From Alphaproteobacteria bacterium (lineage in GTDB: Bacteria; Pseudomonadota; Alphaproteobacteria; Rhodobacterales; Rhodobacteraceae), in the NCBI GenBank assembly GCA_030427145.1, contig JAUHWT010000020.1, positions 1 to 64,000 of the forward strand: 64,000 nt of DNA. Direction: 5' to 3'. Made by a program: the position numbers and the translations under genes. The notes beneath the pieces were generated by a model. It was given only the letters and a program-made list of their open reading frames with translations, did no database searches and was not told the origin of the DNA. Shown one piece after another: positions 1 to 40,612 of this stretch. Positions within the stretch are counted from its first letter, which is position 1, and the number at the start of each line of letters is the position of its first letter.

Positions 1-346
1 TCCATCTGCGGGAGCCGGCCGGGCTTTCCCCCGTTACGTCCTACTCTCGGGCATACGGCCCAGCTCCCCCCGGAAATGGTTAGCAAAGCCACCCCCGGTT
101 TGCGACGCTCCGCGCTGCGAAACGCCTGACCGGAAAGATACAAGTCGGGCATGGCGTGTCGTGCCGACACGCCGGGGATGGTGGCGGGACATTTGCCCAA
201 CACCCGGCCAGGCATCGGAAAACGCACTGTTCTTTTCGGTGGTGTGAACTTTACAGGCCCTCGGGAGGCGCTACCGCGCCACCCGAAGTCCGCGATGCCC
301 TCCGGCATTCACCGGACCGCAGGAAGCCGCTCAAACCGCCGAAAAA
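1..346. other. Intergenic stretch downstream of carB, no gene seen
   Basis: I see no convincing gene in these bases at the left window edge. Open frames on the plus strand here have no ribosome binding site and no recognisable product. The only structure is a perfect 8-bp inverted repeat at 153-160/166-173 with a 5-base loop; it has no T run, so it is not a classic terminator, although it lies where carB transcription (minus strand) would end. Confidence 0.4.
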
Positions 347-3300
347 TCAGAACCCCTGGATCGGAGCCACCTCAAGCGCGCCCTCAAGACGGTTGCGCAT
401 GGCGAGTGCCGCGGCCCGTGACCCGGCTGCGGTGGTGAAATACGGGATCTTCATCGACAGGGCGAGCGACCGGATCTCCCGGCTGTCCGCCACCGACTGC
501 GCCCCCTCGGTCGTGTTGAACACAACCTGAATGCCGCCATCCTTGATCTGGTCCACAATATGCGGACGCCCCTCATAGACCTTGTTCACCTTCTTCGCAT
601 CAATGCCATTGGCCGACAGGTAATCCAGCGTGCCACCGGTCGCCACAATCTCGAAGCCCAACTCACTGACCACCCGCGCCGCCTCAAGCGTCAGGGCGTT
701 CTTGTCGCTGTCCTTGACCGAGAGGAACACACGGCCCTTTTCGGGCAGGGTGGTTCCGGCCCCGATCAGCGCTTTCAAAAACGCCCGGTCAAAGCTGCGG
801 TCCACACCCATGACCTCACCGGTCGAGCGCATTTCCGGCCCAAGAATGGTGTCAACGCCCGGGAACCGGTTGAAGGGCAGAACCGCCTCCTTCACCGCCA
901 CATGCTTCGTCTTCGGGCTCTTCAGCTCAAATCCCGACAGCTTCTCACCAGCCATCACCCGCGAGGCGATCCCGGCTATGGGCGAGCCAACGGCCTTCGC
1001 CACGAACGGCACGGTCCGCGAGGCGCGCGGGTTGACCTCCAGAACGAAGATCTCACCGTCCTTGATCGCAAACTGCACGTTCATCAGACCGACAACATTG
1101 AGCCCAATGGCCAGCGCCTTCGCCTGCGCCATCAGCTCCTCAACCACCGCATCGTCGAGCGAGTAGGGCGGCAGGGCACAGGCACTGTCACCGGAATGCA
1201 CGCCCGCTTCCTCGATATGCTCCATCACGCCCGCGATATGAACGTCCGTGCCGTCGCTGATCGCATCCACATCGACCTCAACCGCGCCGACCAGATAGCT
1301 GTCGAGCAGGATCGGATTGTCGCCAAACAGATCCACGGCCTCGCCCACATATCGGCGCAGACCCGCATCATCGCGCACGATCTCCATACCCCGGCCACCG
1401 AGCACGAAGGACGGACGCACAACCAGCGGAAATCCAATTTCGGAGGCCACGGCCTCGGCTTCCTCAACCGACCGCGCAAGACCGTTCGCGGGCTGCTTCA
1501 GCCCCAGCTTGTGCAAAAGCTGCTGGAACCGCTCCCGGTCCTCGGCCAGATCAATCGCATCGGGCGAGGTGCCCAGAATAGGAATGCCCGCCTCGTCCAG
1601 CGCATTGGCCAGCTTCAGCGGCGTCTGCCCGCCGAACTGCACGATCACGCCCTTCAGCGTTCCCTTCTGCCGCTCCACATCCAGGATGTTCAGCACGTTC
1701 TCAAGCGACAGCGGCTCGAAATACAGCCGGTCCGACGTGTCATAGTCCGTCGACACCGTCTCCGGGTTGCAGTTGACCATAATGGTCTCGTACCCGGCAT
1801 CGGACAGCGCAAAACATGCGTGACAGCAGCAGTAGTCGAACTCGATGCCCTGACCGATCCGGTTCGGACCGCCGCCCAGAATGACAACCTTTTCCCGCTC
1901 CGAGGGCCGGGCCTCACACTCGCTCAGCGCCATCGCGTACTGCTCATATGTCGAGTACATATACGGCGTCTGCGCCTCAAACTCGGCGGCACAGGTGTCA
2001 ATCCGCTTGAACACCGGCGTCACGCCCAGCCTCTGCCGCTCGGCCCGCACGTTCATCTCATTGCGCGCCGTCAGTGTCGCCAGCCGCGCGTCGGAGAAGC
2101 CATACATCTTCAGACGGCGCATCGCCTCGGGATCATCGGGCAGGCCGTTTTTCCGGACGACCTCCTCCATATCCACGATCTCACGAATGCGCGCCAGGAA
2201 CCACGGATCGAACTTCGTCACCGCATGGATCTCGTCATCCGTCAGCCCATGGCGCATCGCCTGGGCCGTCAGCCGCATCCGGTCCGGCGTCTGATGCGAC
2301 AGCGCATTAATGACGGCGGCCTTCACATCGTCGCCATCGGCCCCCTCGATCTCAATCTCGTCAAACCCGGTCAGCCCGGTCTCCAGCGAGCACAGCGCCT
2401 TCTGCACGCTTTCATGGAACGACCGCCCGATCGCCATCGCCTCACCGACCGACTTCATCGCGGTGGTCAGCAGGGGCTCGGAACCAGGGAACTTCTCAAA
2501 CGCAAAACGCGGAATTTTCGTCACGACATAGTCAATCGTCGGCTCAAAGCTCGCGGGCGTCACCTGGGTGATGTCATTGTCCAGCTCATCGAGCGTATAG
2601 CCCACGGCCAGCTTCGCCGCGATCTTGGCAATCGGGAAACCGGTCGCCTTGGACGCCAGCGCGGAGGACCGCGACACGCGCGGGTTCATCTCGATCACGA
2701 TCAGACGGCCCGTCTCGGGATGCACCGCGAACTGCACGTTCGACCCGCCCGTTTCCACACCGATCTCGCGCAGCACCGCAATGGATGCATTGCGCATCAT
2801 CTGGTACTCCTTGTCGGTCAGCGTCAGGGCAGGGGCCACGGTAATACTGTCGCCCGTGTGAACGCCCATCGGGTCCACGTTCTCGATGGAACAGATGATG
2901 ATGCAGTTGTCCGCCCGGTCGCGCACAACCTCCATCTCATACTCTTTCCAGCCCAGCAGGCTCTCGTCGATCAGGATCTGGTTCACCGGCGAGGCATCGA
3001 GCCCCGTGGCACAGATCCGCATGTAATCCTCGCGGTTATAGGCCACACCACCGCCCGTACCGCCGAGCGTAAACGCGGGCCGGATGATCGCGGGCAGACC
3101 CACATGGTCAATCGCCGCAATCGCGTCCTCCATCGATTCCGCAATCGTGGCCCGCGGGTTTTCCAGCCCGATCCGGTCCATCGCCTCCCGGAACAGAGCC
3201 CGGTCCTCGGCCATCTCAATGGCTTCCCGCTTCGCCCCGATCAGCTCGACATTGAATTTCTCCAGCACACCCATGTCCGCCAGCGCCAAAGCGGTGTTCA

Positions 3301-3586
3301 GGCCCGTCTGCCCGCCCATGGTCGGCAGCAGCGCATCAGGCCGCTCCTTCTCAATGACCTTGGCCACCACCTCGGGCGTGATCGGCTCCACATAGGTCGC
3401 GTCCGCCATGCCCGGATCCGTCATGATCGTCGCCGGGTTGGAGTTGACCAGAATCACCCGGTATCCCTCCTCGCGCAGCGCCTTGCAGGCCTGGGCGCCG
3501 GAATAGTCAAACTCGCAGGCCTGTCCGATGACAATGGGCCCGGCTCCGATGATCAGGATCGAGTTGATGTCGGTTCTTTTTGGCAT
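347..3586 (-). CDS. carB: Carbamoyl-phosphate synthase large subunit
   Basis: This 1079-residue protein is the full-length synthetase subunit that makes carbamoyl phosphate from bicarbonate, ATP and glutamine-derived ammonia for pyrimidine and arginine synthesis in the cytoplasm. The sequence starts [22 protein letters not shown] and has the two homologous ATP-grasp halves typical of CarB: the [17 protein letters not shown] nucleotide motif near the N terminus and its counterpart [17 protein letters not shown] about 560 residues later, each followed by GGTGGG or GGRG-type loops and E-NPR ligand motifs. The C-terminal MGS-like allosteric domain is present (ATGGTLDYL). Length matches the family. 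The glutaminase subunit gene carA is not in this window, so the two subunits are not adjacent on this side. The start at 3586 follows a GCGGGG-type site. Confidence 0.98.
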
Positions 3587-3750
3587 GTGGCCCCGCAGTG
3601 ATCTGTCCGCGACCGTGAGATCCGGTCCGGGTTTAGGATGGAGTGCTGGTTAGCAAATTGCCGTGGTTATAGTCAGCGCACGACGCTGCGCAAGGGCTCA
3701 AACAGCCCCCGCGGCCAAACCTCTTTCACCATGTTGCGAAGGGCCGGTTT

Positions 3751-4413
3751 TCAGGCGGCGTGCGCCGCCATGAACATGCGAATGCAGTAGGCCACATGTT
3801 TGCGGATTTCCTGCTCGGACATCGCGGGCATATCGGGCCGGAACAGCCGCGCCCAAAGATGATTGGCCCGGACCGCTCCGATCAGCGCCGCTGCCGCCAT
3901 GTCCGGATCACTGACCTTCAGAACCCCGCGTTTGTCAGCGCCCGCAAGGTATCTGGCGATCCGGGACTGGGACCGGCCGGGACCGTTTTCGAAGAAATCC
4001 ATGCCAAGATTCGGAAAAGACGACTGGGACGAGGCACAAAGCACGTTGAACCTGCTGAATTCCGGCGTCGTCGTCGCCCGCAAAAGCCCTTCCAGAAACT
4101 CCGTCAGCGTCGCCTCCACGGAACCGCTGTCATCATCCATGCAGGTGATGTCCCGCAGGGCCTGCTCATTCTTCTCAAGCGCCAGTTCCGAAAACCGGGT
4201 CACGGCGGCCCGGTACAGGCCCTCCTTGTCCCCGAAGTAACTGTATATGGTGCTTTTCGATCCGCCCACGCGCTCCACAAGGGCGTCGATACTCATGCCC
4301 TGGTAGCCCATCTCGCAAAACAGTTCGATCGCCGCGTCGAGAATATCCCTACGTTTACCCTGTTGCCTCAGGGTCCAGCCGCGTTTGGCCGGTTTGGTCA
4401 TTGGTTCGCTCAT
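3751..4413 (-). CDS. TetR/AcrR family transcriptional regulator
   Basis: This protein of about 220 residues has a TetR-type N-terminal helix-turn-helix: a helix reading RRDILDAAIELFCEMGYQG, then MSIDALVERVGGSKSTIYSYFGDKEGL, the usual DNA-recognition signature. The C-terminal half is a ligand or dimerisation domain with no diagnostic motif, so the inducer is unknown. I chose the ATG at 4413 (MSEPMTK); an in-frame TTG at 4455 would add 14 basic residues. TetR proteins often regulate themselves or a divergent neighbour. The divergent gene here is aspS, 440 bases away, an unlikely target. The intergenic region contains a perfect FNR-type box and a TGTTTA/TAAACA palindrome that could belong to this promoter. 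Confidence 0.9.
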   Translation of the reverse strand: MSEPMTKPAKRGWTLRQQGKRRDILDAAIELFCEMGYQGMSIDALVERVGGSKSTIYSYFGDKEGLYRAAVTRFSELALEKNEQALRDITCMDDDSGSVEATLTEFLEGLLRATTTPEFSRFNVLCASSQSSFPNLGMDFFENGPGRSQSRIARYLAGADKRGVLKVSDPDMAAAALIGAVRANHLWARLFRPDMPAMSEQEIRKHVAYCIRMFMAAHAA

Positions 4414-4589
4414 CAGTTTGTACTTTCTCTTCCTCTGCGGGGAAGGGTCAGCCAAACGGGAAGCGGATCCGTTGCATCTTTTCCATATGCCTCTATCGAA
4501 TCACGATGCGTTTTCCTCCCGTCATCAATGCTTCACATATAGCATACCAAAGTACCGATAGTATTAAATTTCGTATTGTGATCAGTTAT

Positions 4590-4603
4590 TTGATTGAGAT
4601 CAA
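4590..4603. promoter_or_regulatory. FNR/FnrL-type box, perfect match
   Basis: The sequence TTGATTGAGATCAA is a perfect match to the TTGAT-N4-ATCAA consensus bound by FNR/FnrL-family regulators, which act when oxygen is low. It lies 177 bases upstream of the tetR start (minus strand) and 251 bases upstream of aspS. The distance to either start codon is compatible with a promoter further in, but no promoter elements were identified. It could also arise by chance in AT-rich DNA. Confidence 0.5.
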
Positions 4604-4646
4604 TTGCATTAACGCTAATACACATGTCGGATGTAAACCTTTCAAT

Positions 4647-4663
4647 TGTTTACATGATAAACA
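4647..4663. promoter_or_regulatory. Palindrome TGTTTA-N5-TAAACA, possible operator
   Basis: A perfect 6-bp inverted repeat with a 5-base spacer (TGTTTACATGATAAACA) lies in the AT-rich tetR-aspS intergenic region. Its size fits an operator for a dimeric repressor such as the neighbouring TetR protein, but nothing shows which protein binds it. Confidence 0.3.
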
Positions 4664-4853
4664 TTGCGTGAATAGGGCAGACAGTACTAAGAACGTTCCA
4701 ATTTTAGTCCACGCCTGACCATCGTGACAGGTCACCCGTCTAACCTGCCGAAACCCCGATAAAGCGCCTTTCCCCGCCGGTCTTGCGCCATCCCCATGCC
4801 TCGTTATAAGTCCCCACGCTAAAGTTGCGCTTTTTTCCAGGGATGATCCTTTC

Positions 4854-6632
4854 ATGCACGCCTATCGCACGCACACATGCGCCGACCTGACCGCCGCCAA
4901 TGTTGGCGAAAACATCCGCCTGTCCGGCTGGGTAAACCGGGTCCGCGACCATGGTGGCGTGCTCTTCATCGACCTGCGGGACCATTACGGTGTCACCCAG
5001 GTTCTCGCCGACGCCGACAGCCCGGCCTTCTCCGAGATTGAGAAAGTCCGCGCCGAATGGGTCATCCGCATCGACGGCACCGTAAAGGCCCGCGACCCCG
5101 AGCTGGTGAACCCCAAAATCCCCACCGGTGAGATCGAGGTCTTCATCCGCGACATGGAAGTGCTGGGCGCGGCCGAGGAACTGCCCCTGCCGGTCTTTGG
5201 AGACGTGGAATACCCCGAGGAAACCCGCCTGAAATACCGCTTCCTCGACCTGCGCCGCGAGAGCCTGCACGGGAACATCGTTCTGCGCTCAAAGGTGATC
5301 TCGACCCTGCGCGAGGAAATGGTGGGGCAGGGCTTCACCGAATACCAGACCCCGATCCTGACGGCCTCCTCCCCCGAGGGCGCCCGCGACTTCCTCGTGC
5401 CGTCGCGTCTGCACCCCGGCAAGTTCTACGCGCTGCCCCAGGCCCCGCAGCAGTTCAAGCAGCTGATCATGGTCGCCGGTTTCGACCGCTACTTCCAGAT
5501 CGCCCCCTGCTTCCGCGATGAGGACCCCCGCGCCGACCGCTCCCCCGGTGAGTTCTACCAGCTCGACATGGAGATGAGCTTTGCCACCCAGGAGGACGTC
5601 TTCCAGGTGATCGAACCCGTCATGCGCGGCGTCTTTGAGAAATACGGCAAGGGCCGTCCCGTGACGCAGGACTTCCCGCGCATCGCCTACCGCGACAGCA
5701 TGCTCTGGTACGGCTCCGACAAGCCCGACCTGCGCAACCCGATCAAGATGCAGATCGTCTCCGAGCATTTCGCGGGCTCCGGCTTCAAGATCTTCGCCAG
5801 CCTCCTTGAGAAGGAAGGCACCGAAGTCCGCGCCATTCCCGCCCCCGGCGGCGGCTCCCGCAAATTCTGCGACCGCATGAACTCCTTTGCGCAGGGCGAA
5901 GGCCTGCCGGGCATGGGCTACATCTTCTGGCGCGAGGCTGATGGCGGCATGGAAGCCGCAGGCCCGCTCGCCAAGAACATCGGCCCCGAGCGCACCGAAG
6001 CCATCCGTCAGCAGCTTGACCTTGGCGCTGGCGACGCCGCCTTCTTCCTCGCGGGCAAACCCCACGAGTTCGAGGCGGTGGCCGGCAAGGCCCGCGTCCA
6101 TATCGGCCAGGAACTCGGCATCTCCAAAACCGACACCTTCGAGTTCTGCTGGATCGTTGATTTCCCGATGTACGAGATGGACGAGGAAACCGGCGCGCTC
6201 GATTTCAGCCACAACCCGTTCTCCATGCCCCAGGGCGGCATGGAAGCCCTCGAAACCCAGGACCCGCTGGATATCCTGGGCTACCAGTACGACATCGTCT
6301 GCAACGGCATCGAGCTGTCCTCCGGCGCCGTGCGAAACCACAAGCCCGAGATCATGTACAAGGCCTTCGAGGTGGTCGGCCACAGCCGCGAATTCGTCGA
6401 TGAAAACTTCGGCGGCATGCTCTCCGCCTTCAAATTCGGCGCCCCCCCGCACGCAGGCATCGCGCCGGGCGTCGACCGCATGGTCATGCTGCTGGCGGAC
6501 GCCGAAAACATCCGCGAGGTCATCATGTTCCCCATGAACCAGCGCGCCGAGGACCTGATGATGCAGGCCCCCTCCGAAGCCACCAACGAACAGCTCCGCG
6601 ACCTGGGCCTCCGTCTCATTCCAAAAGAGTAG
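4854..6632 (+). CDS. aspS: Aspartate-tRNA ligase
   Basis: This 592-residue class II aminoacyl-tRNA synthetase charges tRNA-Asp (and possibly tRNA-Asn, since many alphaproteobacterial enzymes are non-discriminating). The N-terminal OB-fold anticodon-binding domain begins [35 protein letters not shown]. Class II motifs are visible: motif 2 in the [24 protein letters not shown] stretch (FRDED) and motif 3 near the C terminus ([13 protein letters not shown]). The bacterial-type GAD insertion domain lies between them. The length fits the bacterial family. A strong stem-loop lies 17 bases after the stop. Confidence 0.98.
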
Positions 6633-6649
6633 GGGCCAACCCCCAAACC

Positions 6650-6679
6650 CTCCCGCCCGGCACCACCGCCGGGCGGGAG
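6650..6679 (+). terminator. GC-rich stem-loop after aspS
   Basis: A perfect 12-bp stem (CTCCCGCCCGGC pairing with GCCGGGCGGGAG) with a 6-base loop ACCACC begins 17 bases after the aspS stop. There is no T run, so it may need Rho or serve as a 3'-end stabilising hairpin. Its core is shared with a hairpin at 35946-35965, suggesting a recurrent element in this genome. Confidence 0.55.
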
Positions 6680-6718
6680 ACAAATTACCGCGTGGATCCA
6701 GCCACTCATCTGTCGAGC

Positions 6719-6784
6719 CCCACGCACTTAAATAAACTTGTCCCCATAAAACCCACGCACTTAAATAAACTTGTCCCCATAAAA
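6719..6784. repeat. Two exact tandem copies of a 33-bp unit
   Basis: Two identical 33-bp copies (6719-6751 and 6752-6784) abut each other and are followed by the first 7 bases of a third (6785-6791). The unit is AT-rich and includes ACTTGTCCCCATAAAA. It lies between the aspS terminator hairpin and the GGDEF-EAL gene and codes for nothing obvious. Its origin is unknown; a remnant of a mobile-element end is one possibility. Confidence 0.9.
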
Positions 6785-6854
6785 CCCACGCGCAATTACG
6801 TACCATTAATTCCGATCCGCTAGTCCTCCCCCGGTATTTTTCATCACTGTAGGT

Positions 6855-8834
6855 TTGCGGGCGGGGGGCCTGGGGTCAGTGTTTCTTGGTAGACTTGCAT
6901 CGGTGTTTTCCGTGCCGAAGGACAATCCCAGTCTGGTGATTGCCCAGGCCCGCACGTTCTCGCGCCAGATCCCGGTGATGTACGCCATGGTCATCGTGAA
7001 CTCGCTGGCGCTGGCCTGGCTGCACCAGGGCATCGCCCCCGACCATCTGAGCATATACGTACCCGCGGCGCTCGTTGCCCTGTCCATATACCGCACGATC
7101 AACCACTGGCGCTTCGGCCACCAGGAGATCAGCGGCGAAACCGCCCGCAAACAGCTGCGCACCACAATGGTGTTCGCGGGCGTGCTCGGCGCGGTGTTTG
7201 CCGGCTGGGCCCTGTCCCTGTTCAAATACGGCGACGCCTATACCAAGGGGCAGGCGGTGTTTTTCATCGGTGTGACCTGCATGGGCATTCTGGTCTGTCT
7301 CATGCACCTGCGGGCGGCGGCTCTGCTTCTCACGGTAGCGGTGATCGGCCTGACCGTGCCGTATCTGCTGTTGATGGGACAGACGACCTATACCGTTGTC
7401 GCCGTCAACCTTTTGATCGTCACCGTCGCGGTTCTGTTCGTTCTGTCGCGCTATTCCAACTCCTTTGTGGAGCTGATCGCCAACCAGGACGCGCTGAAGG
7501 CCGCGGCGGAGGCGTCGCGCGAACTCAGCGACCGCAACGAGCGGCTGGCCAATCTCGACGCGCTGACCGGGCTGCCCAACCGCCGCAGCTTCATGGCCGA
7601 ACTCGACCGCCGCATCTCGGAGGGCGAGGCCGAAAACGTGGCCTTTGCCGTCGGAACCATTGACCTCGACGGCTTCAAACCGATTAACGACATCTACGGC
7701 CATGTCGCCGGTGACCGCCTGCTCCGGGCCGTAGGCGAACGCATCGCCCAGGTGGAACGGAGGGTGTTTGTCGCACGCCTCGGTGGTGACGAGTTTGGCC
7801 TTATCATCCCCGGAGATCACGGCAGCGGCGCGCTAAAAGCCCTCGGTGACCGGTACTGCAACACGCTGCGGGCACCATTTGAGCTTGAGGATTTTACCGC
7901 CACGATTGGCGGTTCGATTGGTTTTGCGAAATACCCCGATGCGGCCTCCACGGCTGAACAGCTCTTTGAATACGCAGACTTCGCGCTTTACTCCGCCAAG
8001 GACACCGCCCGCGGCACCACAACCGTCTTCAGCCCGGAACACCGGTCCAGCATCGACCGCTCCAACCGCATCCGGCGCGAGCTTCAGATCGCAGATCTGG
8101 AGGAGGAGCTGGCCGTCCACTTCCAGTTCATCGTCGACGCCTGGAGCGGGGTGCCATGCGGGGCGGAGGCGCTCGCCCGCTGGAACAGCTCGGTGCTCGG
8201 CCGCGTCCCGCCCGGCGAGTTCATCTCCGCAGCCGAGCAGACGGGGCTCATCAACCGCCTGACCCGCATCATGCTCGCCAAAACCCTCGAGGCGGCAAAG
8301 GACTGGCCTGGCGATCTGACCGTGTCCTTCAACCTCTCGGCCAGGGATATCGGCTACCGCAACCACATCGTTCAGCTGATGGATATTGTGAAAGCCTCCG
8401 GTTTCCCGACTGAGCGTTTGATGTTCGAGGTCACGGAATCCGCCGTCGTTCACGATCTGGAGCGCGCCAGCGAAACGCTCCTGCTGCTGAAAAGCCTCGG
8501 AGTTCAGATCGCGCTGGATGATTTCGGCGTCGGCTATTCCAGCCTCAGCTACGTGCAGGCCCTGCCGCTCGACCGTCTGAAAATTGACCGCAGCTTCGTG
8601 ATGCAGATTGAGCAGAGCCGCAAATCCCACGCCGTGGTCCAGACCGTTGTGGACCTGTGCAACAACCTGCGTCTCGACTGCGTGGTGGAGGGCGTGGAAA
8701 CCGAAGGTCAGCGCGACCTGCTGCGCCAGATCGGCTGCACCAAAATCCAGGGCTATCTCTATCACCGCCCGATGGCGTCGGAGGACGCCGTTAAATTCCT
8801 GCGCGACATTCCCGAACTCTCCAGGGTCGCCTGA
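6855..8834 (+). CDS. Membrane-bound GGDEF-EAL cyclic-di-GMP protein
   Basis: This protein of up to 659 residues joins an N-terminal membrane region of several helices (about residues 41-197) to a GGDEF domain (LDALTGLPNRRSF start; intact GGDEF at 310-314) and a C-terminal EAL domain (EAL at 438-440, DDFGVGYSS and EGVET further on). It could therefore make and/or degrade cyclic di-GMP at the inner membrane. No RxxD inhibitory-site motif is seen five residues before GGDEF. Both catalytic signatures look intact, so the net activity cannot be told. The start is uncertain: TTG at 6855, or GTG at 6879, 6903 or 6912. It stands alone, between a tandem repeat and the TetR/EamA pair. Confidence 0.93.
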   Translation: MRAGGLGSVFLGRLASVFSVPKDNPSLVIAQARTFSRQIPVMYAMVIVNSLALAWLHQGIAPDHLSIYVPAALVALSIYRTINHWRFGHQEISGETARKQLRTTMVFAGVLGAVFAGWALSLFKYGDAYTKGQAVFFIGVTCMGILVCLMHLRAAALLLTVAVIGLTVPYLLLMGQTTYTVVAVNLLIVTVAVLFVLSRYSNSFVELIANQDALKAAAEASRELSDRNERLANLDALTGLPNRRSFMAELDRRISEGEAENVAFAVGTIDLDGFKPINDIYGHVAGDRLLRAVGERIAQVERRVFVARLGGDEFGLIIPGDHGSGALKALGDRYCNTLRAPFELEDFTATIGGSIGFAKYPDAASTAEQLFEYADFALYSAKDTARGTTTVFSPEHRSSIDRSNRIRRELQIADLEEELAVHFQFIVDAWSGVPCGAEALARWNSSVLGRVPPGEFISAAEQTGLINRLTRIMLAKTLEAAKDWPGDLTVSFNLSARDIGYRNHIVQLMDIVKASGFPTERLMFEVTESAVVHDLERASETLLLLKSLGVQIALDDFGVGYSSLSYVQALPLDRLKIDRSFVMQIEQSRKSHAVVQTVVDLCNNLRLDCVVEGVETEGQRDLLRQIGCTKIQGYLYHRPMASEDAVKFLRDIPELSRVA

Positions 8835-8940
8835 CCCCGTTTGAACCACGCTGACGGCTCCAGGGCGCAGGCAAGTCACGTGACCCCTTGCGCGCCTCTT
8901 AAAATAGGTATACCGGTCTGGCTACTTGGGGGGAGCCGCC

Positions 8941-9531
8941 ATGCTGACACCGGAAAAACCGCGCCGAAAATCCGCCCATGACCGTCTGATGCAGGCGGCC
9001 ATGTCCCTGTTCTATGACCACGGCATCACCGGCACCGGTATAGACGCCATCGTTGAACGCGCCGGCGTCGCGAAAAAAAGCCTCTACAACAACTTCTCCT
9101 CCAAGGCCGATCTCGTGAACCAGTATCTCGAGGCCCGCCACGCGGAATGGCTCGGGCTCTACGACAAACGTGTCGCCACGGCGAACAACCCCAGGGAGCG
9201 CATCCTCGCGGTGTTCGACGCCTATCAGGATCACGCCGAATTCGCCTACGAGCGCGGCTTTCGCGGCTGCGGGCTTCTAAATGCCGCGGCCGAACTTGAG
9301 GCCGGTGATACCGGTCGCGCCGCCGTCCGCCGTCACAAGGAACAGGTTGAAAGCATTCTCGCGCAGCATCTCGGCGACCTGCTGCCCAATGATCCCGACC
9401 GCGCGAAATCCCTCGCGGAACACATCGCTTTTCTGCTGGAGGGCGCCATGGCCCGGGCCGGTCTGGAGGGCAACAGCAAACGGCTCCTCGCGGCCCGCGC
9501 CGTGGTCCGGAACATGGTGGAAGGTCTCTGA
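8941..9531 (+). CDS. TetR family regulator next to EamA exporter
   Basis: This 196-residue regulator has the TetR-type helix-turn-helix at its N terminus (AMSLFYDHGITGTGIDAIVERAG, then VAKKSLYNNFSSKADLV). The ATG at 8941 was chosen because a GGGGGAG ribosome binding site lies just upstream. The stop is followed after one base by the ATG of an EamA-family transporter, so the two are almost certainly co-transcribed, and the regulator probably controls the exporter in response to its substrate, which is unknown. Confidence 0.93.
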   Translation: MLTPEKPRRKSAHDRLMQAAMSLFYDHGITGTGIDAIVERAGVAKKSLYNNFSSKADLVNQYLEARHAEWLGLYDKRVATANNPRERILAVFDAYQDHAEFAYERGFRGCGLLNAAAELEAGDTGRAAVRRHKEQVESILAQHLGDLLPNDPDRAKSLAEHIAFLLEGAMARAGLEGNSKRLLAARAVVRNMVEGL

Positions 9532-9532
9532 C

Positions 9533-10456
9533 ATGATGCAGGCACATGCGCTGGGCGTCATCGCCATCCTGTTTTCTGCCGTGGTCTGGGGCACCACCGG
9601 CACCGCCGCCACCTTCGCCCCGGATGTCAGCGCCGCCGCAATCGGTGCCGCCGCCATGGGAGTAGGCGGCCTCGCCCAGGCCCTGCTGGCCGCACGGGGC
9701 ATCTACCGCACACGCGTCACCCTCTGGGACCAGCGCCGCCTCCTTGTGACCGGCGGTTTGGCGGTGGCGATTTATCCGCTCGCTTTCTACGGCTCGATGC
9801 GTCTCGCCGGAGTAACCGTCGGCACCGTGATCACCATCGGCTCCGCCCCGCTGCTCTCCGCCCTGATCGAATATCTGCTCGAGGGCCGCCGACTGACCCT
9901 GCGCTGGTCCATCGGCGCTCTTGTCGGCCTGATCGGCATGGCGCTCATCTGCGTGGCCGAGAACTCTTCCCACGCCGCCACCATCGGCGCCCAGTCGGTC
10001 CCGCTCGGCGTGGTCCTCGGCCTCATCGGCGGTCTGACCTATGCACTCTATTCCTGGACCGCGCGCAAAATGATGCTGCAGGGTGCGGCATCCTCCGTCG
10101 CGATGGGTGCGACATTCGGCCTAGGTGGTCTGATGCTGATGCCGGTCCTCTTTCTCACCGGCGGTCCGTTTCTGGCTTCCTGGACCAACGCCGCCGTCGG
10201 CCTCTACATGGCCGCCGTTCCCATGTTCCTGGGCTACATCGCTTTCGGCTATGGGCTCGCCCGCGTCCAGGCGAGCACGGCCACCGTCATTACTTTGTTC
10301 GAGCCGGTGGTGGCCGCGGTCCTCGCCGTCCTGATCGTGGGCGAACGGCTGCCGGCCATGGGCTGGCTCGGCGTTGTCATGGTGGTCGGCTGCCTCGCCA
10401 TCATTACCCTGCCATCCTCAATCCGAAGACGGCCGGGACTGGCTCCTGCGACCTGA
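9533..10456 (+). CDS. EamA/DMT superfamily transporter
   Basis: This 307-residue inner-membrane protein has about ten hydrophobic helices arranged as two EamA repeats, the architecture of drug/metabolite transporters such as RhaT or YdcZ-like exporters. It begins MMQAHALGVIAILFSAVVWG, with the typical WG-T motif in helix 1, and ends with a short basic tail. Two ATG codons in a row (9533, 9536) are possible starts. It is translationally linked to the TetR gene upstream. The substrate cannot be read from the sequence. Confidence 0.92.
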   Translation: MMQAHALGVIAILFSAVVWGTTGTAATFAPDVSAAAIGAAAMGVGGLAQALLAARGIYRTRVTLWDQRRLLVTGGLAVAIYPLAFYGSMRLAGVTVGTVITIGSAPLLSALIEYLLEGRRLTLRWSIGALVGLIGMALICVAENSSHAATIGAQSVPLGVVLGLIGGLTYALYSWTARKMMLQGAASSVAMGATFGLGGLMLMPVLFLTGGPFLASWTNAAVGLYMAAVPMFLGYIAFGYGLARVQASTATVITLFEPVVAAVLAVLIVGERLPAMGWLGVVMVVGCLAIITLPSSIRRRPGLAPAT

Positions 10457-10643
10457 CCCGGAGAACCTCGGGCGCGTGCCCGTGTTGCCTGGTCCCGCTG
10501 CTCCGTGTCCGCAACGATCACGGGATCTCAACCGCGCGTCATGACGCGTGGGCAGGGGGCTGGTTGGTGATTCCCGGTCCCCAAATTCGCTCCCGAAACT
10601 ACAAACCCCGTGCAGAAACTACCACTTTTCAGCAAAACCCCGT

Positions 10644-10711
10644 GCAATCTGTGCCATTTGACTCACAATCTGTGCCACTTTTCTGCAGATCTGTGCCACT
10701 TCAGCACCCAA
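10644..10711. repeat. 21-bp-periodic repeat, shares 35 bp with the HisC-like gene
   Basis: Between the EamA gene and the thiolase gene the sequence CTGTGCCA(C/T)TT recurs at 10649, 10670 and 10691, exactly 21 bases apart. Bases 10644-10678 are the exact reverse complement of 33689-33723 inside the HisC-like gene, 23 kb away. A further partial echo is the repeated AAACCCCGTGCA at about 10604 and 10635. Regularly spaced short repeats like this are known at the ends of IS21-type elements, so a mobile-element end or remnant is possible; no transposase gene is present. Confidence 0.85.
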
Positions 10712-10719
10712 AAGAGCAC

Positions 10720-11889
10720 TCAGCGGACCCGCTCGAGGATCGAAACATAGTTGGCAACCGACAGCCCACCCATGTTGAAAATCCCCGCCATCTCCGCATC
10801 CTTCACCTGCATCGCGCCCGCATCCCCGGCCAGCTGCATCGCGGCCATCACATGCATGGAAACACCCGTCGCCCCAATGGGATGCCCCTTGGATTTCAGC
10901 CCCCCTGACGGGTTGACCGGCAGCCGTCCGTCCATCTCCGTAAGTCCTTCATCCACAACGCGAAATCCCTGGCCTGGCTCCGCCAGACCCATGGCCTCAT
11001 ACTCAATCAGCTCCGCAATCGTGAAGCAGTCATGGGTCTCCACCAGCGACAGGTCATCGAGCGTCACCCCCGCATCCTCCAGCGCCTTTGCCCATGCCAG
11101 AGCCGCCCCGTCAAACGAGATCTTCGACCGCCTGCTGACCGGCAAAAAGTCATTGACCTGGGCGGTGGACCTGAACCCGATCACCGGCCGCCCCGACTCC
11201 TCCGCAATCTCCGGTGTGGTCAGGACGAGAGCTGCTGAACCATCTGAAATCATTGAGCAATCCGTGCGCCTCAGCGGACCCGCCACAATCGGATTTTTGT
11301 CCGACACCGTGTTGCAGAACTCAAACCCGAAGTCTTTTTGCATATGCGCCAGCGGGTTGTTCAACCCGTTTCTGTGGTTCTTCGCCGCAATCCGCGCAAG
11401 GCTCGCGCTCCTGTCGCCCCAGGCCTGAAAATAGGCGTCCGTGACCTGCCCAAACACCCCGGCAAACCCGCCCTCAACATCCGCTTCCTCGCGCACGTAG
11501 CACGCGCCCAGCAGCACCTCACCGGCGGCTTTGGTCGGAATTTCCGTCATCTTTTCAACGCCTACGACCAGAACCCGCTTCGCCTGACCGGCCCGGATCG
11601 CGTTGATTCCCGCATGGATCGCAGCCGATCCCGTAGCACACGCGTTCTCCAGCCGTGTCGCCGGCACATGCCGCAGCGCGGGCTCCGCCAGGGCCACCAG
11701 CGAGGCCTGAAAATCCTGCTTCTGAAACCCGTTGTTGAAGGCGCCCAGATAGATCGCATCGATCTCCTCCGCCCCACAGCCCGCATGGTCCAGAGCCGCC
11801 GGCACCACTTCCGCCACCAGCTCCTCCGCCCCCTCGGCCTCCGACCGCCCAAACCGCGAATGGGCCCAGCCCGCAATGCAAACGTCCAT
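10720..11889 (-). CDS. Thiolase family protein (SCP2-type acetyl-CoA acetyltransferase)
   Basis: This 389-residue thiolase probably cleaves or condenses acyl-CoA thioesters in the cytoplasm. The nucleophilic cysteine lies in NACATGS (Cys84), followed by the SCP2-thiolase HDCF motif (VETHDCFTIAELIEYEAMGL) and the GHPIGATG histidine loop. The usual C-terminal CxG cysteine is replaced (FNMGGLS), as in SCP2-type thiolases. The start at 11889 (MDVCIAGWAHSRFGRSE) follows a clear GGGAGGA site; a longer frame to 11970 lacks one. SCP2 thiolases usually sit next to an OB-fold DUF35 partner gene, which is missing here. Confidence 0.9.
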   Translation of the reverse strand: MDVCIAGWAHSRFGRSEAEGAEELVAEVVPAALDHAGCGAEEIDAIYLGAFNNGFQKQDFQASLVALAEPALRHVPATRLENACATGSAAIHAGINAIRAGQAKRVLVVGVEKMTEIPTKAAGEVLLGACYVREEADVEGGFAGVFGQVTDAYFQAWGDRSASLARIAAKNHRNGLNNPLAHMQKDFGFEFCNTVSDKNPIVAGPLRRTDCSMISDGSAALVLTTPEIAEESGRPVIGFRSTAQVNDFLPVSRRSKISFDGAALAWAKALEDAGVTLDDLSLVETHDCFTIAELIEYEAMGLAEPGQGFRVVDEGLTEMDGRLPVNPSGGLKSKGHPIGATGVSMHVMAAMQLAGDAGAMQVKDAEMAGIFNMGGLSVANYVSILERVR

Positions 11890-12320
11890 GTTGTCCTCCC
11901 GACCCGCGCACGGCTGAACCGCCGCTGCGGCAACGAATTCCCGTCGATTCATCAACAGTATGCACGCCACGCCACGATCACAAAAGCGAATCCGGGCGGG
12001 ATTCGCGCTGCGGACGGGCAGGGGGAGCGTGGGGAACGAAGGAGGAACTGCAAACCGGCCGGTACGGTGCGGCTTAACAAAGAATAATTTTCAGTAAACT
12101 CTAAATATAAACTTTCAGATAAAAGCTGCGGATCAGTCCGAAAAGAAGAGCTTTTTTGCCGTTATTTCAGAAATTTAACCGCTTATAAACGGCTCAGGAG
12201 GTTAAATTGGAAAAATATATACAAAACAAAAGTACTGTTTTGTTGAAAAGTGAAAACGTCTGTGTAGACAGGCAGCGTGTCGAGGCACGCAGTAAATCGG
12301 AAGTATCAGGAGTGTTTCCA
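11890..12320. other. AT-rich promoter region of the tad locus
   Basis: The region between the thiolase and flp holds no supported gene. Bases about 12070-12260 are strongly AT-rich compared with the flanks, as expected for the strong flp promoter. A CtrA-like palindrome lies at 12175-12190. A good AGGAGG site at about 12195 precedes an in-frame TTG at 12207, which would extend Flp by 38 residues; I think the ATG at 12321 is the real start. Confidence 0.55.
12175..12190. promoter_or_regulatory. CtrA-like box upstream of flp, two mismatches
   Basis: TTAACCGCTTATAAAC matches the alphaproteobacterial CtrA full-site consensus TTAAC-N5-GTTAAC with two mismatches in the second half. It lies 131 bases upstream of the flp ATG. 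CtrA control of pilin genes is known in Caulobacter. The match is imperfect and the surrounding DNA is AT-rich, so this is only a candidate. Confidence 0.3.
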
Positions 12321-30100: not shown

Positions 30101-32836
30101 ATGCCGATGGAAAAGAACTTCGACGCCGCCACGGCGGAACCGGAAATCAGTGCAAAATGGGAAGCGGCCAACGCTTTTGCCATGGGTGCCAACGCGAAAG
30201 AGGGGGGTGAGCCGTTCTCCATCCTTTTGCCGCCGCCCAATGTGACCGGCAGCCTGCATATGGGCCACGCGTTCAACCATACGCTGATGGACATTTTGAC
30301 CCGCTGGCACCGGATGAAAGGGGATTACGTTCTCTGGCAGCCGGGTCTCGACCATGCGGGTATTGCGACGCAGATGGTTGTTGAGCGCAAGCTGGCGGCT
30401 GATGGCAGCCCCGGGCGTCGCGAGCTGGGCCGTGAGAAATTCGTTGAGAAGGTCTGGGAGTGGAAGGAGGAGTCCGGCGGGACAATTCTGGAACAGTGCC
30501 GTCGCCTTGGTGACAGCTTCGATCTGGACCGCAACCGGTTCACGATGGATCCGGGCTTCCACGATGCGGTTCTGAAAACCTTCGTTGAGTTCTACAACAA
30601 GGGTCTGATTTTCCGCGGGAAACGCCTCGTGAACTGGGACCCGAAATTCGAGACCGCGATCTCGGATCTTGAGGTCGAGCAGGTCGAGACCAACGGGCAC
30701 CTCTGGCGTTTGCGCTATCCGTTGGAAAATGGCGAGACCTATCAGCATCCAGTTGCATGGGATGACGAGGGCAAGCCGACCGAATTCGAGACGCGCGACT
30801 ACCTGGTCGTTGCGACCACGCGGCCCGAAACCATGCTGGGCGATACGGGCGTCGCGGTACACCCCGATGATGAGCGCTACAAACATCTGGTTGGCAAAAC
30901 CGTGCGTCTGCCGCTGGTTGGGCGGTCAATTCCGATTGTGGCGGATGATTACGCTGATCCGGAAAAAGGCACCGGTGCGGTGAAGATCACCCCGGCCCAT
31001 GACTTCAACGACTGGGAGGTTGGCAAGCGCCAAAACCTGCGCGTTATCAATGTTATGGATCGGCAGGCGAATATTTCGCTGGAGATCGATCCGGGCTTCC
31101 TCAAAGGCGTTGAAGTTTCTGATGCCCTCAAGGCATTCGACGGTCTCGAACGCTATGAGGCCCGCAAAAAACTGATCGCTCTGGCCGAGGCTGAAGGCTG
31201 GCTTGATGGCATCGACAGCGAGGTCCATATGGTGCCCCACGGGGACCGGTCCAAGGTCGCCATTGAGCCCTACCTGACCGACCAGTGGTTTGTTGACGCG
31301 GCCAAACTGGCCGGTCCGGCCATGGACGCCGTCAAAACCGGAAAGACCCGTATCCTGCCGGAAAGTCAGGAGAATACCTATTACCGCTGGATGGAGGAGA
31401 TCGAACCTTGGTGTATTTCCCGCCAGTTGTGGTGGGGTCATCAGATTCCGGTGTGGTATGATGAGGATGGCAATCCCTACTGTGCCATGACCGAGGATGA
31501 GGCCATTGTTCAGGCCGGCGGCAGGACGCTGACCCGCGACCCCGACGTACTCGACACGTGGTTCTCCTCAGGGATTTGGCCCCTTGGAACAATGGGTTGG
31601 CCGGATAAAACGCCAGAGGTGGAAAGGTTCATTCCGACAAGCGTGCTCGTGACCGGGTTCGACATCCTGTTTTTCTGGGTTGCGCGCATGATGATGATGC
31701 AGATCGAACTGTCCGGCGAGGTGCCGTTCCGCGACGTCTATATTCATGCCCTGGTTCGGGACGAGAAGGGCAAGAAGATGTCCAAGTCCCTGGGCAATAT
31801 TCTCGATCCTATTGAGCTTATTGATGAATTTGGCGCGGACGCGGTGCGGTTTACCCTGTCGTCCATGGCGGCGATGGGGCGCGATGTGAAATTGAGCCGG
31901 GACCGGATTGCGGGGTACCGGAATTTCGGGACCAAGCTGTGGAATGCCGCGCGGTTTGCGGAAATGAATGGCTGCAAGCCCGATCCGGACTTTGATCCGA
32001 CCTCCGTGAAGCTGACGGCGAACCGCTGGATCGTTGGTGAGACCGGTAAGGTCCGCGAGGAACTGGACGCCGCGCTGACCGCGTATCGGTTCAATGACGC
32101 CTCCAACGCGCTCTATTCCCATGTCTGGGGGCGGGTGTGTGATTGGTATGTGGAACTCGCCAAGCCGTTGTTCCAGGACGAAAATTCAGCGCCTGAGACC
32201 CGTGCTACGATGGCTTGGGTTCTTGATCAGTGTATTGTCATGATGCATCCGTTCATGCCGTTTATTACCGAAAGCCTGTGGGGTGGTATTGCCGAGCGGG
32301 CGGAAATACTGGCGCACCGGGAATGGCCGGACTACGGCACGGGACTGGTTGACGCGGATGCGGATGACCGGATGAACTGGATCATCGATCTGATCGAACA
32401 GATCCGGTCGCTGCGGGCGGAGATGCGGGTTCCGGCAGGGGCGAAAATCACGCTGCTGAAACTGGATCTCGATGCGGATCGCGCCGAGGTTCTTGCGGAA
32501 AATCAGGCGCTTGTGGCGCGGCTTGCCCGTATTGAGACCTTTGGTGAGGCGGAAGAGGCGCCGGTTGGGTCGATCACTTTCACCTGCCGTGGTGGCACGT
32601 TCTGCCTGCCTTTGGCGGATGTGATTGACATTTCGGCCGAGAAGGCGCGGCTGGAGAAGGCGGTTGGCAAACTTGAGAAGGATGTCAAAGGCTTGCGCGG
32701 TAATCTTGCCAATGAGAAGTTCCTGGCCAATGCCAAACCTGAGGTGATTGCGGACAAGCGCAGTAAGCTCGTGGAGGCGGAGGAGGAACTGGTGGTTCTG
32801 AATGCCGCGCGTGAGCGCCTCGCGACGCTGGGATAA
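30101..32836 (+). CDS. valS: Valine-tRNA ligase
   Basis: This 911-residue class I synthetase charges tRNA-Val. The HIGH-type motif is HMGH at residues 53-56 inside [18 protein letters not shown], the KMSKS motif is intact ([11 protein letters not shown], about residue 560), an editing domain lies between them ([19 protein letters not shown]), and the C-terminal coiled coil of ValRS is present ([19 protein letters not shown]). Starts at 30101 and 30107 are both possible; the upstream open frame is not coding. It probably heads a unit with the HisC-like gene 24 bases after it. Confidence 0.97.
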
Positions 32837-32860
32837 ATCCACACTATCCAGGGGGTGAGG

Positions 32861-33967
32861 ATGCCAAAATATACGGATGTTGTGTCCTCACTTCCCGTGA
32901 CCGTCCCGTTCGTGGGGCCGGAGGCGCAGGAACGGGCGTTGGGGCGGCCGTTTCGGGCGCGGATCGGTGCCAATGAGAACCTGTTTGGACCGTCGCCCAA
33001 AGCGGTTGAGGCGATGGGCAAGGCGGCGGCAGAATGCTGGAAATATGGCGACTCCACCAGCCATGAATTGCGGGAGGTACTTGCCGAACATCACGGTGTC
33101 GCTCCGGAAAATATTCTTGTAGGTGAAGGGGTTGACGGACTTTTAGGATACCTCGCCCGCCTCGTTGTGCAGCCGGGAACGCCGGTTGTGACGTCGCTGG
33201 GCGCGTATCCGACGCTGAATTATCACGTCAATGGATTTGGCGGGATTTTGCATACGGTTCCTTTCCGGAATGATGCTGAGGATCCGGAGGGCCTGGCGGC
33301 GAAGGCGCGGGAGGTTGGTGCCTCGCTCGTTTACCTGAGTAATCCGGATAACCCTATGGGAACATGGGTGAAATCCGAGCGGATTGCCGCAATGACGGCC
33401 TCTATGCCGGAGGGGTGTCTGCTGTGTCTGGATGAGGCCTATGTGGAGTTTGCGCCGGCGGAGGCCGTTCCGGAGATTGACGTGGCGGATGAGCGCGTCA
33501 TCAGAATGCGCACGTTTTCAAAGGCTTATGGGATGGCCGGGGCCCGGATCGGCTACGCCATCGGGCATGTGGATCTGATTGCGATGTTTGACCGGGTGCG
33601 AAACCACTTTGGAGTGAACAAAATTGCCCAGGCCGGGGCGCTCGCGGCGTTACGGGATGGTTCGTATTTGGCACAGATTGTGAGTCAGGTGGCACAGATT
33701 GTGAGTCAAATGGCACAGATTGCTGAGGTTAATGGTCTTTCGTGCCTTCCGAGCGGTACAAATTTCGTCGCAATCGACTGTAAACGCGACGGCGCGTTTG
33801 CGCGTCGGGTTCTGGAGGCGTTGGTGGCCGACGGCGTGTTCGTGCGAATGCCGTTCGTCGCGCCGCAGGACCGCTGCATCCGGGTGACGGCCGGGCCGAA
33901 GACCGAGATGGAGATTTTCGCGGATGCTTTGCCCCGGGCGTTGAAGGTCGCGCACCTGGATCATTGA
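32861..33967 (+). CDS. HisC-like pyridoxal-phosphate aminotransferase with internal heptad repeat
   Basis: This 368-residue fold-type I aminotransferase resembles histidinol-phosphate aminotransferase: ANENLFGPSP near the N terminus, GEGVDGLLGYL, NPDNPMGTW, LDEAYVEF and the PLP lysine in RTFSKAYGMAGARIGYA. No other his genes are near, so it could act on aromatic or other amino acids. A 21-bp unit is repeated in frame at 33670-33690, 33691-33711 and (partly) 33712, giving AQIVSQV-AQIVSQM-AQIAEV. Part of this DNA also occurs, inverted, at 10644-10678. The ATG at 32861 has a strong AGGGGGTGAGG site. Confidence 0.88.
   Translation: MPKYTDVVSSLPVTVPFVGPEAQERALGRPFRARIGANENLFGPSPKAVEAMGKAAAECWKYGDSTSHELREVLAEHHGVAPENILVGEGVDGLLGYLARLVVQPGTPVVTSLGAYPTLNYHVNGFGGILHTVPFRNDAEDPEGLAAKAREVGASLVYLSNPDNPMGTWVKSERIAAMTASMPEGCLLCLDEAYVEFAPAEAVPEIDVADERVIRMRTFSKAYGMAGARIGYAIGHVDLIAMFDRVRNHFGVNKIAQAGALAALRDGSYLAQIVSQVAQIVSQMAQIAEVNGLSCLPSGTNFVAIDCKRDGAFARRVLEALVADGVFVRMPFVAPQDRCIRVTAGPKTEMEIFADALPRALKVAHLDH
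33670..33723 (+). repeat. In-frame 21-bp tandem repeat inside the HisC-like gene
   Basis: Two near-identical 21-bp units (33670-33690 and 33691-33711, differing at two positions) and the start of a third (33712-33723) code for a helical heptad. Bases 33689-33723 are identical to the reverse complement of 10644-10678. Confidence 0.9.
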
Positions 33968-34036
33968 TAGTAACGGTGAGTGTTACCGGACTAGGACTCA
34001 ATCGTAATTAAGGAACTTGGCTTCATTAATTTTTGA

Positions 34037-35797: not shown

Positions 35798-36068
35798 TGT
35801 GGAAACCTAATTAGTAGTGCTGACTGAAAATAGTTCATTTAAGCAATAAGTCGGACCCAGGTCACTTCATTTCTAAAGGTTATGGCCCTCGAGCAATTCA
35901 GGGATAATTTTAAAGATCGCGGGGCGGGGGTAGTTTAAACGTCCCGCCCGGCGGTGACGCCGGGCAGCGCCGACCGCCCCCAATGGGCGGCGCTTCGCTA
36001 CCGCCCGCGGTCCGCGCTGCCCTCAGAGGAAGGGCGGCGCGGTTGGTGTTGTATTGGTTGTTGCCGGA
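35798..36068. other. Intergenic region with REP-like hairpins
   Basis: The first 130 bases continue the AT-rich composition of the pentapeptide gene. Then 35941-36013 switches abruptly to GC-rich DNA with two adjacent hairpins: GCCCGGCG-GTGA-CGCCGGGC at 35946-35965, and an interrupted AGCGCC...GCCC/GGGC...GGCGCT stem at 35966-35994. Such paired hairpins resemble repetitive extragenic palindromes. No gene is seen. Confidence 0.5.
35946..35994. repeat. REP-like double hairpin
   Basis: The first hairpin is a perfect 8-bp stem with loop GTGA. The second has a 6-bp outer stem AGCGCC/GGCGCT and an inner GCCC/GGGC stem separated by a GACC bulge. The core CCCGCCCGGC is shared with the hairpin after aspS (6650-6679). 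Confidence 0.45.
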
Positions 36069-36287
36069 TCAGTTGCAGGTTTTGCGGCTGCCGTAGACGC
36101 CGCCGGCGGTGGCGCCTGCGGCTGTGGCGATTTTGTTGCCGGAGCCGCCGCCGATCTGGTCTCCGATGATGCCGCCGATGGCCGCGCCGCCCGCGGTGCC
36201 GATGGCGCAGTCGGCGTCCGGGTCGCCGGTGGAGCAGGCGGACAGGCCGATGGAGGCGATGGCCGCAATGCCGAGATACTTGATCAT
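36069..36287 (-). CDS. Small glycine-zipper lipoprotein (copy 1)
   Basis: This 72-residue protein has a lipoprotein signal (MIKYLGIAAIASIGLSAC) and a glycine-rich segment typical of glycine-zipper outer-membrane proteins (GGAAIGGIIGDQIGGGSGNK, then TAAGATAGGVYGS). It ends in Cys-Asn. It is a close paralogue of the protein encoded at 36431-36649. The start at 36287 was chosen for the signal peptide; the longer frame upstream is not coding. Function unknown; such proteins often sit in the cell envelope. Confidence 0.82.
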   Translation of the reverse strand: MIKYLGIAAIASIGLSACSTGDPDADCAIGTAGGAAIGGIIGDQIGGGSGNKIATAAGATAGGVYGSRKTCN

Positions 36288-36430
36288 GTTGGGAGCCTTT
36301 CCCCTTCTGGTTTCATCCGTCCGTCTCCGGACCGTGCCGGGACGGGTGTAGCGGCTCAACTTTGAGGGGGAAAACGGGGCGCGGCAAGTGCCATTTGGGC
36401 TGTGGCGGAATGCCGCGTCCCCGGGGTCTG

Positions 36431-36649
36431 TTAGCGGCAGGCGGCCTGGCTGCCGGCTACGGCACCGGCGCCTGCGCCGATGGCCGTGGTGGCGCGGTTG
36501 CCGTCACCGCCGCCGAACTGGTCACCGATCACGCCGCCGAGTGCGGCCCCGCCAATGGTGCCCGCGGCACAGTCGACATCCGGGTTGCCGGTGGAGCAGG
36601 CGGACAGGCCAATGGAGGCCACTGCCGCGATGCTGAGAATGCGTATCAT
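36431..36649 (-). CDS. Small glycine-zipper lipoprotein (copy 2)
   Basis: This 72-residue paralogue of the downstream protein has the same plan: signal MIRILSIAAVASIGLSAC with lipobox LSAC, the shared STGxPDxDCA segment and a glycine zipper (GGAALGGVIGDQFGGGDGNR), ending in Cys-Arg. It starts after AAGGA. The two copies lie in tandem with 143 bases between them, indicating a local duplication. A second cysteine (DCA) and the terminal one could form a disulphide. Confidence 0.82.
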   Translation of the reverse strand: MIRILSIAAVASIGLSACSTGNPDVDCAAGTIGGAALGGVIGDQFGGGDGNRATTAIGAGAGAVAGSQAACR

Positions 36650-36679
36650 CAGGATTTTCCTTCCCTTACAGAGTGTCTT

Positions 36680-40591: not shown

Positions 40592-40612
40592 GGCCGGATC
40601 CCGTACCTGGTT

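What the first reader, a model, noticed from the sequence alone, without database searches (positions are those of the whole stretch)
10644..10678. 35-bp exact inverted match between an intergenic repeat and the inside of an aminotransferase gene
Bases 10644-10678 are the reverse complement of 33689-33723. The first copy sits in a non-coding stretch where CTGTGCCA(C/T)TT recurs every 21 bases; the second is inside the HisC-like gene, also with a 21-bp period. A 35-base identity 23 kb apart is far beyond chance, so one source sequence has reached both places. Regular short repeats of this kind are known from the ends of IS21-type elements, but that assignment is inference. The pair could also recombine to invert the 23 kb between them.
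Basis: partly seen in the sequence, partly recalled or inferred. Interest (0 to 1): 0.72.

Follow-up and report, generated by a model that had tools for sequence, protein, structure and literature searches.

The report
One-way launch sites across bacterial genome
About 31 short repeat clusters scattered over one bacterium's genome each mark the start of a long one-way stretch of lopsided DNA composition, as if DNA copying often started at each of them and not only at one usual origin.

Summary
The 35-bp inverted identity is real but is only the visible tip. Both window copies belong to 30 strong arrays plus one weak one in this 4.54-Mb genome, apparently a Rhodobacteraceae: 21-bp-period units around a nearly invariant 34-bp core holding a GANTC site in 29 of 30. 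No other of 394 family genomes searched scored near them. The IS21 reading fails: the genome's IS21 element lacks the unit.

The arrays mark something striking. Where fetched, GC skew changes abruptly at most arrays, in one fixed sense relative to array orientation. Over 1.57 Mb on eight array-bearing contigs, array position and orientation alone explain 62% of GC-skew variance; the effect is one-sided, with a decay length near 35 kb. It shows at fourfold-degenerate sites in genes of both strands, so it is mainly strand-specific mutation, not gene direction. One relative lacks the sawtooth.

Best reading: the arrays are iteron-like launch sites of one-way DNA synthesis (confidence 0.55). The skew is measured; that it is replication, and which protein starts it, are inferred.

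The parts
10614..10723 (+). Array A: 21-bp-period repeat array; core 10644-10677, units to about 10698 and degenerate beyond. Intergenic between convergent genes.
   Evidence: model match 10621-10719, 88.8 bits. GC skew changes about 1.3 kb to its right (L123).
33644..33753 (-). Array B: same family, opposite orientation, in frame inside the aminotransferase gene; core 33669-33723.
   Evidence: model match 33652-33744, 71.9 bits. 88 of 88 relatives ungapped here and none with the AQIVSQ heptad.
32855..33967 (+). PLP-dependent aminotransferase gene (NCBIfam PRK08153) that carries array B in its codons.
1..12000 (.). Left (affected) side of array A: plus-strand GC skew about -0.05 to -0.19, switching to positive near 12 kb.
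   Evidence: change point 1,330 bp right of the core.
31500..60000 (.). Affected side of array B: plus-strand GC skew mostly +0.08 to +0.24 (dip to +0.04 over the low-GC gene at 34-36 kb), fading after about 60 kb.
   Evidence: up-jump at 31.5 kb.

Best explanation
The arrays are protein-binding sites that launch DNA synthesis in one fixed direction, leftward when the core reads on the plus strand. A protein not identified here would bind the 21-bp (two helical turns) repeats along one face of the DNA, much as plasmid Rep proteins bind iterons. Synthesis would start within about 0-3.5 kb to the right of the array, pass over it, and run left for tens of kilobases, stopping at a roughly constant rate per length. 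Because this happens often, its strand asymmetry has been written into the DNA as a sawtooth of GC skew. Shown: the arrays, their orientation, the one-sided skew, its decay, its presence in genes of both strands, and the near-invariance of the core. Inferred: that the process is DNA synthesis (origin firing, or recombination-primed synthesis), that an initiator binds the array, and that the GANTC site ties it to CcrM methylation.
For: One-sided decaying model from array positions alone: R2 0.62 over 782 bins, opposite-side amplitude -0.003, nulls at most 0.28 and 0.41; held-out contigs r 0.54-0.86. Mean jump at arrays 0.144 (n 18) against a rotation null of 0.007, sd 0.017, maximum 0.076. The weak array on C28 also sits at a jump. 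Fourfold sites carry the skew in genes of both strands. Sign: the strongest array-free jump in the fetched 1.57 Mb lies beside a Rep_3-type replication gene with 22-bp-spaced repeats and is also upward. 21-bp direct-repeat build with a nearly invariant core. DNA-level constraint overrides codons and a residue that is R or K in 87 of 88 relatives.
Against: No initiator found; the neighbours I could read are ordinary genes. DnaA boxes are not enriched, the arrays are not detectably similar to the Rep_3 iterons on the same strand, and a second Rep_3 locus (C13) shows no jump. The C27 jump is 4-5 kb from the Rep locus at the scale. Genes are not co-oriented with the inferred movement (44%). Far from arrays skew is near zero, so ordinary forks leave little trace, which would fit a special kind of synthesis or transfer better. 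5 of 19 arrays have no jump of 0.09 and 5 of 30 lack the expected change point. The relative G005 has 2 upward jumps of at least 0.09 in 378 kb without arrays. No replication data exist here.
Confidence: 0.55

Rival explanations
1. The arrays are nick or cut sites for one-way DNA transfer or packaging (oriT-like or pac-like); the strand moved or displaced leftward is replaced by rolling-circle or break-induced synthesis, which leaves the skew.
For: Strict one-sidedness and decay with distance resemble gradients of transfer. A start 0-3.5 kb to the right in 25 of 30 would fit an end trimmed before priming. Skew far from arrays is near zero, so the process seems more asymmetric than ordinary forks.
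Against: No relaxase, terminase or transfer gene was looked for or found; it would have to happen very often to shape third-position composition of a large part of the genome.
Confidence: 0.22
2. Very long leftward transcription launched or made processive at the arrays causes transcription-associated strand asymmetry.
For: The sign is also that expected for a leftward transcript (recalled: non-template strand exposed); start to the right of the array.
Against: Neighbouring gene contexts are mixed (convergent 8, divergent 8, ++ 4, -- 5, inside 4, undetermined 1); it would run antisense to about half the genes for tens of kilobases; no fold in the two arrays tested.
Confidence: 0.07
3. Polar fork barriers, inversions between arrays, or gene direction create the jumps and the arrays are incidental.
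For: Arrays in both orientations could in principle recombine; barriers are polar.
Against: Gene direction: fourfold sites mostly agree in sign between strands on the skewed side (the C23 30-40 kb bin is an exception). Inversions: would give sign flips both ways and flat segments, while the jumps at arrays are upward and one-sided with decay. Barriers: wrong sign if leading strands are G-rich, and no reason for decay away from the array.
Confidence: 0.08
4. The repeats are ends of an IS21-type element.
For: Regular 20-odd-bp repeats occur at ends of IS21 elements (recalled).
Against: The genome's IS21 element lacks the unit; no rve match within 45 kb of an array on the same contig; no opposite end; the core does not decay although flanks do.
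Confidence: 0.03

Closest known systems
Iteron-type plasmid replication origins (Rep_3 initiators)
   Same: Direct repeats of about two helical turns in phase; one-way replication is known for some (recalled); a Rep_3 locus in the same genome has 22-bp-spaced repeats and a skew switch nearby.
   Different: About 31 copies dispersed in one genome, no rep gene beside them among the neighbours read, no DnaA boxes enriched, no detectable sequence kinship with the two Rep_3 loci on the same strand.
Replication skew domains (N-domains) of the human genome
   Same: Upward skew jumps with slow decline between them; known to me from recall and from the listing only.
   Different: Here in a bacterium, much shorter, tied to a defined oriented sequence, and strictly one-sided.
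Unidirectionally replicating chromids of Pseudoalteromonas (PMC7858055, section 9 read)
   Same: One-way replication seen in skew and read depth.
   Different: One origin per replicon there; about 31 sites in one genome here.
Rickettsia palindromic elements and CcrM-associated intergenic repeats of Caulobacter (both recalled)
   Same: Dispersed short repeats in alphaproteobacteria; some in frame inside genes, or holding GANTC.
   Different: Built of 21-bp direct repeats rather than palindromes; I know of no skew jumps reported at those elements.

Membership tests
IS21-type element ends | Repeats at both ends, in opposite orientation, of an element with istA and istB | tested here: not met
   The istA/istB element on C30 has no exact unit in 4,048 bases; nearest rve match on an array contig about 48 kb away.
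Iteron-type replication origin | Direct repeats of about 17-22 bp in helical phase | tested here: met
   21-bp period.
Iteron-type replication origin | Cognate rep gene next to the repeats | tested here: not met
   Nearest neighbours called at 30 arrays and read by eye, output partly cut; none recognised as rep. The only two Rep_3 matches lie on C27, about 17 kb from an array, and on C13, where no array was found.
Iteron-type replication origin | DnaA boxes and an AT-rich opening region nearby | tested here: inconclusive
   DnaA boxes 7 against 6.7 expected; lowest 60-bp GC 0.371 against 0.404 at random places, the array itself included.
Iteron-type replication origin | Strand-composition switch at the site | tested here: met
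   14 of 19 arrays at the 0.09 threshold.
Iteron-type replication origin | Supports autonomous replication | not testable with these tools
   Needs an experiment.
Rickettsia palindromic elements | Palindromic, folding repeat | tested here: not met
   No fold better than shuffles in two arrays, both strands (z between -0.99 and +0.70).
Rickettsia palindromic elements | In-frame presence inside genes | tested here: met
   Flavin reductase: 35 residues absent from 12 of 12 homologues aligned; aminotransferase: in frame, no length change against 88 of 88.

The most novel reading that the evidence does not exclude
The genome of this bacterium is copied in large part from about 31 dispersed, strictly one-way origins, each marked by a 21-bp-period array: a multi-origin bacterial chromosome with an initiation system unlike DnaA/oriC, not seen in the ten other genomes of its genus searched.
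Probability: 0.4. Interest if true: 0.97.

Novelty: categorically new. Interest (0 to 1): 0.9.

Why it matters
Two reviews, read in passages, state that bacteria studied so far use a single origin per chromosome (PMC10331603; PMC7174701). A genome in which about 31 defined, oriented sequences each launch a one-way, strand-asymmetric process would break that rule, or reveal another chromosome-wide process of similar reach. It makes the question why bacteria keep to one origin testable in a natural case, and it gives a sequence with which to fish for the protein responsible.

Tried and rejected
IS21 ends: rejected. The array elsewhere: exact core 0 in named genomes and viral contigs (records of this genome may be left out there); plasmids 2 records at E 0.3 and phages 1 record at E 4, chance-sized. 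Structured RNA: no fold in two arrays, no Rfam match in the window. Promoter or terminator element: mixed neighbour contexts (of the four called inside an ORF I take only the aminotransferase and the flavin reductase as clear). Gene direction as cause of skew: rejected by fourfold sites. Inversions, fork barriers and simple resection from a break: wrong sign or shape (argument, not a separate test). Sequence kinship with the Rep_3 iterons: score not above shuffles on the same strand; one 12-base match on the opposite strand of L192 (3 per 1000, 300 shuffles). A shared 8-mer on the right flank: none stood out. 16S rRNA orientation as a test of fork direction: no 16S match in the assembly. dnaA (C8:77452): no upward jump there. 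A first alignment of aminotransferases kept 12 of 88 by a too strict filter and was redone with all 88.

Limits: gene calls came from my own codon-score script. The skew map covers 1.57 of 4.54 Mb, on contigs chosen because they hold arrays; the 30 flanking regions cover up to 10 kb each side. The first look scored 150 of 843 candidates; one search scored 9 per genome with stricter filters, and 20 of the 393 other genomes had a match at E 0.01 or better, best 20.6 bits. The control for skew is one relative (G005, 378 kb). Absence of earlier reports rests on the searches in an open-licence library; one search failed.

Full report
What was given. It is exact and ends abruptly on both sides. The first copy is intergenic; the second is in frame in a PLP-dependent aminotransferase.

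A family, not a pair. A search of the window's own assembly (4,540,297 bases, 40 contigs) with 121 bases around the first copy gave 32 matches on many contigs. Two CTGTGCCA units 12-14 bases apart occur 47 times, against 0 for the reversed control, and in none of 60 relatives. The 121-base query finds nothing in the 10 other genomes of the genus. A profile of 30 aligned arrays finds those 30 at 59-99 bits, one further array at 33 bits (C28:5447), and five weaker fragments that lie beside known arrays (150 of 843 first-look candidates scored). Among 394 genomes of the family, own included, no other scores above 20.6 bits, though 20 have a match at E 0.01 or better (stricter filters). The exact core is absent from named bacterial genomes and viral contigs. 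Named relatives of the aminotransferase are mostly Rhodobacteraceae/Roseobacter-group records, at 55-66% identity in the 80 kept; I infer the family from that.

Anatomy. The core GCAATCTG(T/C)GCCATTTGA(C/T)TC(A/T)CAATCTG(T/C)GCCA is present in 29 of 30 arrays, the exact C/A form in 16 of 30. Conservation falls off on both sides with a 21-bp rhythm: degenerate units such as TTGCGCCACTT on the right, a conserved AAAACCCCGT on the left. The most variable core column (20 C, 10 T) is the N of GANTC; 29 of 30 arrays hold GANTC, against 0.135 expected per 110 bases. GANTC is the CcrM methylation motif of alphaproteobacteria (abstract starts in the listing). The arrays form a sharp set: on 1.57 Mb a weight matrix gives 18 arrays above 86, one at 22.4 and none other above 12. 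Two arrays tested show no RNA fold better than shuffles.

Inside genes. In the aminotransferase, 88 of 88 relatives align without a gap over the array region, none has the AQIVSQ heptad, and a residue that is R or K in 87 of 88 is V here. The array has thus replaced codons without a change of length, with rare codons (AGT 0.06, GCA 0.10, CAA 0.10 of their amino acid). In a flavin-reductase-like gene on C27 (named by my reading of the sequence) it is instead an in-frame insertion of 35 residues, five 21-bp units, absent from 12 of 12 homologues aligned. DNA-level constraint seems to outweigh protein constraint.

The skew. In core orientation, the 10 kb left of the 30 arrays has mean GC skew of -0.11 to -0.16 in every 500-bp bin (26-30 arrays per bin), and 30 of 30 are negative in the bin next to the array; from about 3.5 kb to the right the mean lies between 0.00 and +0.05. 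Contig plots show a sawtooth: at most arrays a sharp upward jump, then a slow decline over tens of kilobases on one side. The weak array on C28 also sits at a jump (-0.08 to +0.14). Over 1,568,747 bases on eight contigs with 19 arrays, 14 of 16 upward jumps of at least 0.09 lie within 4 kb of an array. Of the other two, one is 4.1 kb from an array (C36) and one is at C27:28000, 4-5 kb from a Rep_3 locus; with a threshold of 0.08 it is 15 of 18. Fourteen of 19 arrays have a jump of 0.09. The mean jump at arrays is 0.144 (n 18) against a rotation null of 0.007, sd 0.017, maximum 0.076 in 2000. A model with one amplitude (0.20), one decay length (35 kb) and one offset (1 kb) explains 62% of the variance of 782 2-kb bins; the fitted amplitude on the opposite side is -0.003. 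Nulls of 200 reach at most 0.28 (arrays rotated) and 0.41 (orientation shuffled); held-out contigs give r of 0.54 to 0.86.

It is mutational. On C25, C23 and C18 (698 genes by my caller), fourfold-degenerate sites reach -0.58 and +0.57, and on the skewed side plus- and minus-strand genes mostly agree in sign; the C23 30-40 kb bin does not (-0.10 and +0.32). Relative to the nearest array, C is 0.58-0.61 and G 0.24-0.27 within 30 kb on the left, against 0.39-0.42 and 0.37-0.40 on the right. Genes are not co-oriented with the inferred movement (44% of coding bases). The relative G005 shows weak, irregular skew over 378 kb, though with 2 upward jumps of 0.09 or more.

Where it starts. The best change point lies 60-3480 bp to the right of the array in 25 of 30 cases. 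The exceptions are L112, L115, L117, L119 and L120 (log-likelihood gains 8.6, 5.7, 3.0, 26.8, 12.7); L112 and L117 lie within reach of another array. The process seems to start somewhat to the right and run left across the array.

Interpretation. The jumps have the sign of a replication origin if leading strands are G-rich, as is usual (recalled). The one strong array-free jump, on C27, is upward too and lies near a Rep_3 gene (70.2 bits, cut-off 22.4) with 22-bp-spaced repeats; the finer profile changes at about 24 kb, next to those repeats, and rises again at 28-31 kb. The NCBIfam RepM model matches it below its cut-off. A second Rep_3 locus, on C13, shows no jump. I therefore take the arrays as launch sites of one-way DNA synthesis, most simply iteron-like unidirectional origins. 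Recombination-primed or transfer-linked synthesis is the main alternative, since skew far from arrays is near zero. The initiator is unknown: neighbours of the arrays that I could read look like ordinary genes, the genome has one clear DnaA gene with no jump of its own (the second, weak match overlaps IstB), and DnaA boxes are not enriched.

Against the literature. Two reviews, read in passages, state a single origin per chromosome for bacteria (PMC10331603; PMC7174701). Gao 2015 lists four putative double origins (PMC4403523, section 4). Unidirectional replication is shown for Pseudoalteromonas chromids (PMC7858055, section 9). I found no report of dozens of oriented sites with one-sided skew in a bacterium in the searches, which list papers of one open-licence library.

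Noticed in passing
window 34037-35797 (-): A gene with pentapeptide repeats (NCBIfam HetL and Alr5209 matches below cut-off) lies in a low-GC patch (GC 0.49-0.52) directly beside the aminotransferase that holds array B.
   Followed up: no
L075 / C27:40087-40611: Flavin-reductase-like gene with an in-frame insertion of five 21-bp units (35 residues) relative to 12 homologues.
   Followed up: partly
L192 (C27) and L193 (C13): Two Rep_3-type replication genes, each with its own repeats in front; ParA-like reading frames nearby by my reading. One lies near a skew switch, the other does not.
   Followed up: partly
L020, L025, L035 (right ends of arrays): In several arrays the degenerate units run right up to the stop codon of the neighbouring minus-strand gene.
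   Followed up: no
C28:5447-5558: A weak array (33 bits) whose printed sequence has no GANTC still sits at a clear skew jump, as does the GANTC-free strong array at C25:316630.
   Followed up: partly
G000 (whole assembly): No 16S rRNA match in the assembly although completeness is given as 97.7%; no tRNA gene in the window.
   Followed up: no
L074 (C30:45500-49547): An IS21 element with istA and istB at the end of contig C30, with ends unlike the arrays.
   Followed up: partly
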